Made by a program: the position numbers and the translations under genes | The notes under the pieces: model-generated | Database searches by the model: none | What the model was told of the DNA's origin: nothing | Seen by the model: only the letters and a program-made list of their open reading frames with translations | NCBI RefSeq assembly: GCF_029910235.1 | Contig: NZ_CP112874.1 | Location: 1,054,001 to 1,118,000, forward strand | Length of the DNA: 64,000 nucleotides | Reading direction: 5' to 3' | Origin: Pseudanabaena galeata CCNP1313 | Lineage (GTDB): Bacteria > Cyanobacteriota > Cyanobacteriia > Pseudanabaenales > Pseudanabaenaceae | Part shown: positions 40,791 to 47,596 of the stretch, in pieces | Numbering within the stretch: position 1 is the first letter of the stretch | Layout: the number at the start of each line of letters is the position of its first letter

Positions 40791-40845
40791 AAAACCCAAA
40801 TAATGTGAGGCGGCGCGAAGCGCCGCCTCACATTATTTGGGTTTT
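40791..40845. repeat. Perfect palindrome with GGCGGCGC core
   Basis: The 26-base arms (AAAACCCAAATAATGTGAGG...) pair around GAA. The left flank AGGACAAGTC and right flank ATGTCCTA match those around 21764, indicating one element family with fixed ends and variable arms. Confidence 0.85.
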
Positions 40846-41489: not shown

Positions 41490-41557
41490 AGCTCAGCAGG
41501 ATTAAAAAAATTTAAGTGAAATAAAGTTTCAAGCTTTACTTTAACCTTAAATCGAGC

Positions 41558-42001
41558 TTAAGTTCTTGGCTGCACTGCAAGAAAGATTTTGAGCTTAAGC
41601 GATTCGCTATAATCATCTTCATAGATTAATGATTTAACGATCTCTTCCAATAGATTTTTACTGATTAATCCTTCTGCTACCCAAACAGCAATATTTTCCA
41701 TTTCCAATACAAATTTTTTCACAACATAGTCGTAGCCATTGATTTTTAAAAAATAGCATCCTAGTTCAATGCTTGAGCGTTTATTCCCATCCATAAAAGC
41801 ATGGGATTTATTTACAGAAAATACCAAGTGAGTCAACTTATCTTCAAGTTCTGGATAGTAATCATCATTTTGAATATGTGCAAGTGGAGCTTCTAGTAAG
41901 CCCAAGTTATTTATCCCAGCAAGCCCTCCCGAATTATTAATGATCCAATCATGCAATACAACAGCGTAATGAATATCAAAATAAAAAAATTTCTTACTCA
42001 T
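41558..42001 (-). CDS. Doc-like (Fic-fold) toxin
   Basis: The 147-residue protein has the Doc layout: GGLAGINNLGLLEAPLAHIQ near the start and HAFMDGNKRS (67-76), which fits the Fic/Doc motif HxFxDGNKR. Phage P1 Doc phosphorylates elongation factor Tu; most related Fic proteins AMPylate targets. It lies three bases after a large HTH protein gene in the same direction, so the two are co-translated. A standard small Phd antitoxin is absent. Activity and target are inferred from the family only. Confidence 0.85.
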   Translation of the reverse strand: MSKKFFYFDIHYAVVLHDWIINNSGGLAGINNLGLLEAPLAHIQNDDYYPELEDKLTHLVFSVNKSHAFMDGNKRSSIELGCYFLKINGYDYVVKKFVLEMENIAVWVAEGLISKNLLEEIVKSLIYEDDYSESLKLKIFLAVQPRT

Positions 42002-42004
42002 TGA

Positions 42005-43018
42005 TTACCGATCCTTGAGACGTTTAAACACAGCCAAAATCTCTGGATCAGCTAGTTGTTCTTCTAAAGATTTACTGGCTTCGCCTAAGAATTTTTCAAA
42101 ATCAGTTTCTGGGACTGTTTGAATGTAAGCCTCTAACTTTTTATGAAGGGCATCTCTAAAACTTAGATCTCGGCTTGCCATTTTTACGCGAGCATCTTCG
42201 ATAATTGGCTTCAGATAAGGATTACTTGCCGCAACTTCCATAAGCTGATCTAGTTCAACATACTGGAGTTTTCGCCCTAATTGCTCTGATTTACTTTTCA
42301 TCTCCTCTGCTAGACCATTTTCCACACTAGCAATCGCCTTTAATACTTCAGCATAAAGAGTATCGCGTATATTGTCCTTGCTCTTTAAATCAAGAATTTG
42401 CCTATATTCTTGAGCATTTTCTTTGAAAACTAGTTGATAGATTTTATTGGTATAGATCCCAAATTTGCCTTTTCCCATATCTAAATAGTTATCTAAAGCA
42501 TTGGTAAAGACTTTACGATAATTAAATTCTTGATATGTTGAAGGTAGGTAATCACAGTCTCGTTGATTAATGTATTTAGTGTGCCCTCCTGATCGCTCAG
42601 CAACCACCTCAATTACAATATCGAGGATGCGTGAACGGATCATTCTGGCGCGATCGCTCTCCGTTAAAAGCATGGCGAGATTAAGTAAAGCTCGAAATGT
42701 AAATATGCCTAAAACTGTTATTTTGCTACCTTCATCAGTGAAGATACCACCGATAGTGTTTAGGAAATCTCTAAGTACTTGCCCGCGTAAAACTTTATAG
42801 CCGTTAGCTTTAAGTTCTTCTGTATGACTAGCAATATATCTTTCGATAGTGCTTTCACTGATCTCAAATAGGGCGACTAGCTGCTGCTTCGTAAATACTA
42901 CAGTATCGTCATAAACAAACCCGCCGAGAGCTAAATGCTCTTCTACTTTTTCTAGCGCATAGCGATTATTTAGAATATTCTGCCGATCTCGTTGGGAGTT
43001 TGTAAGGTCATTAACCAC
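42005..43018 (-). CDS. HTH (RhuM-like) protein paired with the Doc-like toxin
   Basis: The 337-residue protein is not a known antitoxin. Residues 40-70 (FTKQQLVALFEISESTIERY) look like a helix-turn-helix, and the region with YLPSTYQEFNYRKVFTNALD suggests a RhuM-type DNA-binding protein, although I am not sure. The C-terminal third is helical and acidic (GEASKSLEEQLADPEILAVF). It ends three bases before the toxin gene. The arrangement, with the partner first, fits a toxin-antitoxin operon in which this protein neutralises the toxin and represses the operon. Confidence 0.7.
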   Translation of the reverse strand: MVNDLTNSQRDRQNILNNRYALEKVEEHLALGGFVYDDTVVFTKQQLVALFEISESTIERYIASHTEELKANGYKVLRGQVLRDFLNTIGGIFTDEGSKITVLGIFTFRALLNLAMLLTESDRARMIRSRILDIVIEVVAERSGGHTKYINQRDCDYLPSTYQEFNYRKVFTNALDNYLDMGKGKFGIYTNKIYQLVFKENAQEYRQILDLKSKDNIRDTLYAEVLKAIASVENGLAEEMKSKSEQLGRKLQYVELDQLMEVAASNPYLKPIIEDARVKMASRDLSFRDALHKKLEAYIQTVPETDFEKFLGEASKSLEEQLADPEILAVFKRLKDR

Positions 43019-43152
43019 GACAACTATCTCTGAATAACGAATGTAAGGTTGTATTGCTATTTCTTACCATAACATTCTACCTAGTTTAGCGATAGCATAG
43101 ACTCTGATAGGCTTAAGCAGAGTCTGTAGAACCTAGATCGTTGACAACCCCA

Positions 43153-46063: not shown

Positions 46064-47596
46064 ATGAAAAGAAAATTTCCTTGGTTGCGATCGCTACTTG
46101 TTTTAGGCTGCTTTGGTCTAGTAATTTCGTTTGTCGTTCCCTTACTAGATCGCATTATTCAAATCTACCAACTTGTCTCCACTTCATCGCCAATCTTAGG
46201 CGGCTTCGTAGTGCTGTTAGTGATGGGAGCATTGGCAGGATTGTTTTTTGTGCTTTGGCGATATCTTAATCTGTTTCAAGCAGAACCATCTGCACCCCGA
46301 CCAATCCCTGAAGTTCCCACCGACAAAATTGAAGCTGCTCAAGATAGTCTCGAAGCTCTAGAGCGTCAAGTTGAGCAGATCCAAGATGAGGTAATGCGGC
46401 GATCGCTTGCTGAGCAAACAGAACAACTCAAAAAGAATTTCATTCGTCAAGAATTGCGTGTGGTAGTGTTTGGAGTTGGCTCCGCAGGTAAGACTTCCTT
46501 AGTGAATGGATTGCTCGATTTAGCACTTCAAGATCCTGAGGTTAGAGGTGAAGTAGGCGCAACTATGGGAACTACACAACTGGGGAAAGTCTATATACCT
46601 GTGAAGTTCCCCAATCTAGATGTACCTGTGCAAATTACTGATTGTCCAGGGATTTTAGAAGCGAGTGCCTTGGGTAGCGATCGCGAACAGGAAGCACGAA
46701 AAATCGCCACAGAAGCAGACTTGATTGTATTTGTGGTCGATGATGACTTACGACGCTCAGAATATGAAGTTCTCAAAGCGCTTACGGAAATCGGCAAACG
46801 AATTGTGCTTGCTTTCAATAAAATTGATCGCCTCACTAAAAGCGATCGCGAAATCATTCAGACTAGTTTGCGATCGCGGGTATTAGACTTGATCGCGCCC
46901 GAAGATGTGGTAGCGATCGCTGCCAATCCTGCCGCAATTACCATCGACTCTGGTGAAGTCGTTACGCCTAAGCCCAAAATTCAACCTTTGCTGGCTCGTA
47001 TGCTCGATATTCTCAGCTATGAAGGCGATGAGCTGGTGGCTGATAATGTGCTATTGCGATCACAAAGGCTAACGGAAGCAACTCGTGAAGCGCTCTCTCA
47101 ACAACAACAAGCAGAAGCCGAAAAAGTAGTTGAGAAGTTCCAATGGTTAGTAGTTGGGGTAGTTTTTGCAACGCCTTTACCAGTGGTCGATCTCCTCGCT
47201 ACAGCCGCAATTAACGCACAAATGGTGGTGGAAATTGGAAAGGTCTATGGTTGCGAAATCAATATTGATCGCGGTAAAGAATTGGCAAATTCGCTCACCC
47301 GCACTCTAGTTAGTCTCGGTATCGTTAAAGGCGTAGTCCAAATCATTACCACAGTCATTTCCGTAACGGTCGTAGGACTAGTTCTCAAGGCGACGATTCA
47401 ATCAGTGACGGCTGCCTATCTCACCCGCATTGCTGGCAAGAGTTTTATCGAATATTTCAGTCGCGATCGCGATTGGGGTGATGGTGGTATCGCGGAAGTG
47501 GTGCAGCGTCAGTTCCAACTAAATCGCCGTGATGAGTTTCTCAAAGTCTTTGTCCAAGATGCTGTCAATCGGGTGATGGTCTTGATGAAGCAATGA
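46064..47596 (+). CDS. Membrane GTPase with DUF697 domain
   Basis: The 510-residue protein has two N-terminal membrane segments (LLVLGCFGLVISFVVPLL and VVLLVMGALAGLFFVLW), then a coiled segment and a GTPase domain: Walker A GVGSAGKTSLVNG (137-149), DCPGILEAS and the base-specificity motif NKID. The C-terminal third (about 345-480) resembles DUF697, seen in YcjF-type and other cyanobacterial GTPases. Its function is not established; membrane organisation or stress response is plausible. It starts four bases after the calcium-type ATPase, so the two are very likely co-transcribed. Confidence 0.85.
   Translation: MKRKFPWLRSLLVLGCFGLVISFVVPLLDRIIQIYQLVSTSSPILGGFVVLLVMGALAGLFFVLWRYLNLFQAEPSAPRPIPEVPTDKIEAAQDSLEALERQVEQIQDEVMRRSLAEQTEQLKKNFIRQELRVVVFGVGSAGKTSLVNGLLDLALQDPEVRGEVGATMGTTQLGKVYIPVKFPNLDVPVQITDCPGILEASALGSDREQEARKIATEADLIVFVVDDDLRRSEYEVLKALTEIGKRIVLAFNKIDRLTKSDREIIQTSLRSRVLDLIAPEDVVAIAANPAAITIDSGEVVTPKPKIQPLLARMLDILSYEGDELVADNVLLRSQRLTEATREALSQQQQAEAEKVVEKFQWLVVGVVFATPLPVVDLLATAAINAQMVVEIGKVYGCEINIDRGKELANSLTRTLVSLGIVKGVVQIITTVISVTVVGLVLKATIQSVTAAYLTRIAGKSFIEYFSRDRDWGDGGIAEVVQRQFQLNRRDEFLKVFVQDAVNRVMVLMKQ

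What the first reader, a model, noticed from the sequence alone, without database searches (positions are those of the whole stretch)
41558..43018. Doc-type toxin with a large HTH partner instead of Phd
A Doc-like protein (HAFMDGNKRS) is encoded three bases after a 337-residue protein with an N-terminal helix-turn-helix. Classical Doc is paired with a small Phd antitoxin. The large partner could be a new antitoxin type or a regulator with another activity.
Basis: partly seen in the sequence, partly recalled or inferred. Interest (0 to 1): 0.65.

Follow-up and report, generated by a model that had tools for sequence, protein, structure and literature searches.

The report
Doc toxin with DNA-binding partner (PDC-M59)
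A cyanobacterium carries a two-gene cassette, a Doc-type protein-modifying toxin tied to a large DNA-binding partner, that recurs across bacteria and in phage satellites beside other antiviral genes; it is already catalogued as an untested defence candidate, and how the partner controls the toxin is unknown.

Summary
In detail: a 147-residue Doc protein starts three bases after a 337-residue protein, with no room for a hidden Phd. The pair is a full-length member of PADLOC's two-gene defence candidate PDC-M59 (E=4.5e-98 and 2.6e-29), so the pairing is catalogued; no functional work on it was found. Pairing is strict: all 38 full-length A genes with enough downstream sequence have the Doc next door, and in 296 Bacteroidota genomes every strong M59B hit lies in a genome with A. 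Neighbours elsewhere are R-M types I, IIG and III, AbiE, SoFic and Tmn; the pair is cargo of streptococcal satellites and an E. coli satellite-like element; one Doc is fused to a SEFIR domain. Here it replaces an unrelated ORF between hisB and a P-type ATPase. All Docs keep the kinase-type motif HxFxDGNKR. A has no Pfam family; its predicted fold resembles the Deinococcus DNA-binding repair protein DdrC and KilA-N antirepressors. Best reading: an abortive-infection toxin-antitoxin pair whose partner holds Doc by its conserved C-terminal segment and releases it on sensing phage-altered DNA. Toxicity, neutralisation and trigger are untested.

The parts
42005..43018 (-). PDC-M59A: 337-aa DNA-binding partner (GTG start). 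N-terminal wHTH/KilA-N-like domain about 26-135, helical domain about 150-275 (together DdrC-like), conserved C-terminal segment 276-337 modelled with low confidence
41558..42001 (-). PDC-M59B: Doc-family protein, 147 aa, motif H67-AFMDGNKR-75
42002..42004 (-). 3-nt gap (TCA) between the stop of the partner and the ATG of Doc; homologues run from slight overlap to about 8 nt, so one transcription unit is likely
41510..43081 (.). Segment present here and absent from the nearest relatives, which carry an unrelated 198-codon membrane-protein-like ORF at the same hisB / P-type ATPase junction

Best explanation
A two-gene, horizontally moving toxin-antitoxin-like defence module (PDC-M59). Doc is a Fic-fold kinase that would stop translation by phosphorylating EF-Tu or a similar target. 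The large partner is made first from the same transcript, binds DNA (autorepression likely) and holds Doc inactive, probably through its conserved C-terminal segment (276-337), which the model leaves poorly ordered, as Phd's C-terminal peptide is without Doc. On infection, phage-altered DNA or a phage antirepressor-like protein engages the partner's DdrC/KilA-N-like body and frees Doc, so the infected cell arrests. Shown: obligate pairing, intact catalytic motif, defence and satellite neighbourhoods in other genomes, horizontal acquisition here, the partner's fold class (predicted). Inferred: toxicity, neutralisation, trigger, target.
For: PADLOC M59A/M59B full-length matches. Pairing 38/38 where sequence allows, 33 distinct full-length A sequences; M59B in Bacteroidota is bimodal, 12 hits at E<=1.3e-33, all in genomes that carry A, then nothing until 4.5e-12. 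A and B distances correlate, r=0.81, 0 of 2000 permutations. Doc motif residues invariant in 31 of 31; K at position 8 marks the kinase type (PMC4177925). Neighbours: type I hsdM/hsdS/hsdR, type III mod/res, IIG R-M, AbiEii, SoFic, Tmn; streptococcal satellites, E. coli satellite-like element. Doc-bSEFIR fusion. Fold of A: DdrC Z 13.0/12.7/11.0 against 5.8 for the next entry; KilA-N/antirepressor proteins among viral structures; ORF6N in 4 of 31 homologues. Decay is lopsided: loci with broken A have Doc lost or broken too where it can be read in full.
Against: No experiment on any member was found. The fused-chain model shows no confident A-Doc interface. The window's own copy is not in a defence island and other Pseudanabaena copies sit among ordinary genes. 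No promoter or operator palindrome was found upstream. DdrC similarity is structural only, on a model of pTM 0.44 with rmsd 12 A over two domains; no sequence similarity to DdrC was found. Two other PADLOC candidates tested in another host gave no defence (PMC12409345).
Confidence: 0.6

Rival explanations
1. A plain addiction/stability toxin-antitoxin module: A is a large DNA-binding antitoxin that only keeps the cassette from being lost; neighbourhoods with defence genes reflect shared residence on mobile DNA and stabilisation of R-M operons rather than sensing of phage.
For: Obligate pairing and co-inheritance; patchy, mobile distribution; satellite cargo; insertion inside R-M operons.
Against: A is far larger and more conserved (mean column identity 65%, 57 invariant columns) than an antitoxin needs to be; a Doc-bSEFIR fusion points to immunity.
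Confidence: 0.25
2. A is an activator or targeting subunit: it binds phage or damaged DNA and switches Doc on or brings it to DNA-bound proteins; free Doc is harmless.
For: DdrC/KilA-N-like fold implies DNA recognition; strong M59B hits occur only in genomes with A; kept C-terminal segment as a docking arm.
Against: Doc proteins paired with Phd, and TasB, are toxic alone (PMC1626090, PMC4177925); partner-first gene order is the common type II pattern.
Confidence: 0.1
3. A two-piece version of the known RhuM-Doc fusion proteins (BifA-like), with whatever function those have.
For: RhuM-Doc single-chain proteins exist, also in this genus (L067; PMC3710099; PMC1626090; PMC6529018); both start with a similar HTH.
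Against: Profile comparison aligns only 32 HTH residues with probability about 10%; Pfam RhuM does not match A.
Confidence: 0.05

Closest known systems
PDC-M59 (PADLOC-DB v2 phage-defence candidate, genes M59A and M59B)
   Same: Both genes match over full length and in the same order
   Different: Nothing tested here differs; the catalogue gives no mechanism, and no paper in the library mentions it
Phd-Doc (type II toxin-antitoxin of phage P1 and Salmonella)
   Same: Doc fold and kinase-type motif; partner gene first; DNA-binding partner
   Different: Partner is 337 aa, not Phd-like, no Pfam Phd match; neutralisation unproven
RhuM-Doc/Fic fusion proteins (BifA, COG3943-Doc)
   Same: HTH protein joined to a Doc-type domain, reported near R-M genes
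   Different: Single chain; A shows no detectable RhuM similarity beyond the HTH
DdrC of Deinococcus
   Same: Predicted fold of A residues 26-275, both domains in the same order (Z 13)
   Different: DdrC is a stand-alone repair protein without a toxin; A has about 60 more C-terminal residues; no sequence similarity found
KilA-N/ORF6N/antirepressor proteins of phages
   Same: Viral structures similar to A; weak ORF6N hits in 4 of 31 homologues
   Different: No Doc partner known to me for those; A is one conserved family with its own C-terminal part

Membership tests
PDC-M59 (PADLOC candidate) | Full-length match to model M59A | tested here: met
   E=4.5e-98, residues 3-336 on positions 2-334 of 338
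PDC-M59 (PADLOC candidate) | Full-length match to model M59B next to M59A | tested here: met
   E=2.6e-29, 1-143 on 1-144 of 159; 3-nt spacing
PDC-M59 (PADLOC candidate) | Association with antiviral loci in other genomes | tested here: met
   Embedded in or next to R-M I/IIG/III, AbiE, SoFic, Tmn; not in the window itself
Doc toxin (Fic/Doc family) | Fic/Doc domain with HxFx(D/N)(A/G)NKR | tested here: met
   Pfam Fic 3.5e-9, TIGR01550 above cut-off, HAFMDGNKR; invariant residues in 31 of 31
Doc toxin (Fic/Doc family) | Phosphorylates EF-Tu and arrests growth | not testable with these tools
   needs expression and kinase assay
Phd-Doc toxin-antitoxin system | Partner belongs to the Phd/YefM family | tested here: not met
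   No Phd match for the partner at E<=1 in Pfam; no room for a hidden phd gene
Phd-Doc toxin-antitoxin system | Partner neutralises Doc by direct binding | tested here: inconclusive
   Fused-chain AlphaFold model pTM 0.38, A residues 284-319 and 333-341 under pLDDT 50
RhuM family (PF13310) | Match to the RhuM profile | tested here: not met
   No Pfam match; profile-profile similarity only in the HTH, about 10% probability
DdrC-like fold | Two-domain fold similarity | tested here: met
   Foldseek E=3.4e-4, probability 1.00; VIA Z 13.0 over 200 residues, next entry 5.8; caveats: rmsd 12 A, model pTM 0.44
DdrC-like fold | Binds DNA breaks or single strands | not testable with these tools
   needs purified protein

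The most novel reading that the evidence does not exclude
The partner is a new class of antitoxin that is itself a DNA-damage sensor: a DdrC/KilA-N-like body reads nicked, broken or phage-replicating DNA and, on binding it, lets go of a Doc kinase held by its C-terminal arm, linking R-M cleavage or phage replication directly to translation arrest.
Probability: 0.25. Interest if true: 0.8.

Novelty: new member of a known kind. Interest (0 to 1): 0.5.

Why it matters
Doc has been studied mostly with Phd. A second, obligate and widespread partner with a fold like a DNA-repair protein would offer a concrete way to couple the state of DNA to Doc activation, and it makes an uncharacterised defence candidate testable: two genes, about 1.5 kb, also present in E. 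coli satellite-like elements, easy to clone in laboratory strains. It also gives the candidate a likely effector chemistry and a likely sensor fold.

Tried and rejected
Hidden Phd gene: no room upstream or downstream. Fic-type inhibitory motif [ST]xxx[ED][GN] in A: present in part of the family only, not aligned across it, so not argued. RhuM kinship: it looked plausible by eye over the whole protein but profile comparison supports only the HTH; rejected as a filing. Autoregulatory palindrome and promoter: none convincing. Complex prediction by reading through the in-frame stop: folds Doc well but gives no confident interface; earlier alignments misplaced Doc rows and were discarded. Sequence search of solved structures for A: nothing meaningful. 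The frameshifted Clostridia copies (L014, L016) were considered as recoding; both genes are broken in both, so decay is simpler.

Full report
What is there. On the minus strand the window encodes a 337-residue protein (42005-43018, GTG) followed after three bases by a 147-residue Doc protein (41558-42001, ATG). The host is a Pseudanabaena-like cyanobacterium: the closest loci come from named Pseudanabaena genomes at 84-85% identity. The pair lies between hisB and a divergent P-type ATPase; neither flank leaves room for a Phd gene.

Identity. Doc is a true family member: Pfam Fic 3.5e-9, NCBIfam death-on-curing 6.1e-12, PHROG Doc-like toxin 8.3e-16, solved Doc relatives. The partner has no Pfam or NCBIfam family above cut-off. 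PADLOC names the pair: PDC-M59A, E=4.5e-98, and PDC-M59B, E=2.6e-29. PDCs are candidates found by their embedding within known defence systems (preprint 10.1101/2024.01.29.577857, as described in PMC12988326); validation is pending for most of those discussed there, and no paper in the library names PDC-M59. In annotated records the partner is called 'CiaB protein', 'DNA-binding protein' or 'hypothetical protein'.

Pairing. Fifteen related loci came from genome contigs of Cyanobacteria, Bacteroidota, Ignavibacteria, Clostridia, Pontiella and Neisseriaceae. Counting all loci, 40 full-length A genes were found, 38 with enough sequence downstream; all 38 are followed by the Doc. From the other side, in 296 Bacteroidota genomes the Doc model gives 12 hits at E<=1.3e-33, each in a genome that has A, and then a gap to 4.5e-12, where generic Doc proteins and longer fusion proteins begin. 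Pairwise distances of A and Doc correlate at 0.81 (0 of 2000 permutations as high). The pair is an inherited unit.

Distribution and mobility. It is patchy: 4 of 292 sampled cyanobacterial genomes, 8 of 38 in the window's own family, 21 of 296 Bacteroidota, the last two including remnants. It is in 14 of 5,426 E. coli genomes, near dinD/yicG at the edge of an element with phage ejection proteins and a primase-like gene, in four streptococcal satellite phages next to the integrase, in an Ilyobacter prophage-like region and on a viral contig. In the window's genome it was acquired by replacement: two near relatives with 99% identical HisB have, at the same junction, an unrelated 198-codon membrane-protein-like ORF, and similarity to the window stops at 41509 and resumes at 43082. 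Other Pseudanabaena carry the pair elsewhere, inside an ABC-transporter operon.

Neighbours. Outside Cyanobacteria the pair sits in or beside type I R-M (L006, L008, L010, L011, L015), type III R-M (L021, Ilyobacter, and remnants in L043 and similar loci between mod and res), a type IIG enzyme and a type I restriction enzyme with AbiEii (L007), SoFic (L043) and Tmn (L012). In L012 the Doc carries a C-terminal bSEFIR domain, E=7.9e-51. The window's own neighbours that were tested are not convincing defence genes; the LeoA/LeoBC matches of the GTPase at 46064 are weak.

Chemistry of Doc. H67, F69, D71, G72, N73, K74 and R75 are invariant in 31 Docs. The Doc consensus is HxFx(D/N)(A/G)NKR, and lysine at position 8 forces inverted ATP binding and kinase rather than AMP-transfer activity (PMC4177925). 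Kinase activity on EF-Tu is therefore the expected, untested, activity.

What the partner is. A is well conserved (57 invariant columns in 31 sequences). The AlphaFold model (mean pLDDT 76.6, pTM 0.44) has an N-terminal winged-helix domain, a helical domain and a C-terminal stretch of low confidence. Against solved structures one protein stands out: DdrC of Deinococcus, Foldseek E=3.4e-4 and probability 1.00; VIA Z 13.0, 12.7 and 11.0 over about 200 of 219 residues, the next entry at 5.8. The rmsd is 12 A, so the domains are arranged differently or flexibly, and helical domains can score high by chance; a shared fold does not show a shared function. DdrC binds single- and double-stranded DNA, protects it from nucleases and promotes circularisation of linear DNA (PMC5436757). 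Viral structures similar to A are often KilA-N and antirepressor proteins, and four homologues give weak ORF6N hits. Kinship with RhuM, which is known fused to Doc, was tested and only the HTH aligned.

How it probably works. Gene order, pairing, fold and the poorly ordered but conserved C-terminal segment (276-337) suggest that A represses the operon and holds Doc, and that engagement of A's DNA-binding body by phage-altered DNA or by a phage antirepressor-like protein frees Doc to arrest translation. For comparison, Phd neutralises Doc with a C-terminal peptide that is mostly disordered when free (PMC9207808). Decayed copies fit: where A is broken and the Doc region can be read in full, Doc is lost or broken too (L014-L016, L042-L048), including a deletion that joins A residues 1-102 to Doc residues 92-140 and so removes the active site. 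One genome has A with residues about 158-270 deleted in frame but the C-terminal part kept, with an intact Doc start up to the contig end (L013/L055); an assembly error is not excluded. Toxicity, neutralisation, trigger and target are inferred; the interface was not resolved in silico.

Verdict. What is added here is the strict two-way pairing, the satellite and R-M settings, the allelic replacement in the window's genome, the Doc-SEFIR fusion and a likely fold for the partner.

Noticed in passing
40801-40835: A near-perfect palindrome, AATGTGAGGCGGCGCGAAGCGCCGCCTCACATTA, between two genes; its core GGCGGCGCGAAGCGCCGCC occurs 205 times in this genome (109 forward, 96 reverse) and never in the reversed control, so it is an interspersed REP-like repeat.
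   Followed up: partly
L012:11021-11962: Doc of the M59 pair fused to a C-terminal bSEFIR domain (E=7.9e-51) in a Prevotellaceae bin, with a Tmn-like gene next.
   Followed up: partly
L047:1321-1782: In-frame deletion that joins A residues 1-102 to Doc residues 92-140, removing the Doc active site, between type III mod and res genes.
   Followed up: partly
L013:2810-3514 and L055:284-988: A protein lacking residues about 158-270 in frame but keeping the conserved C-terminal part, with Doc following up to the contig end.
   Followed up: no
L014, L016: Two Clostridia bins with the same frameshifts in both A (after about residue 90) and Doc (after residue 88); decay more likely than recoding.
   Followed up: no
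L067:946-1905: A 320-residue single-chain RhuM-N/Doc fusion in a genome of the same genus.
   Followed up: no
46064-47596: GTPase with weak LeoA/LeoBC matches (E about 1e-12), next to the P-type ATPase.
   Followed up: no
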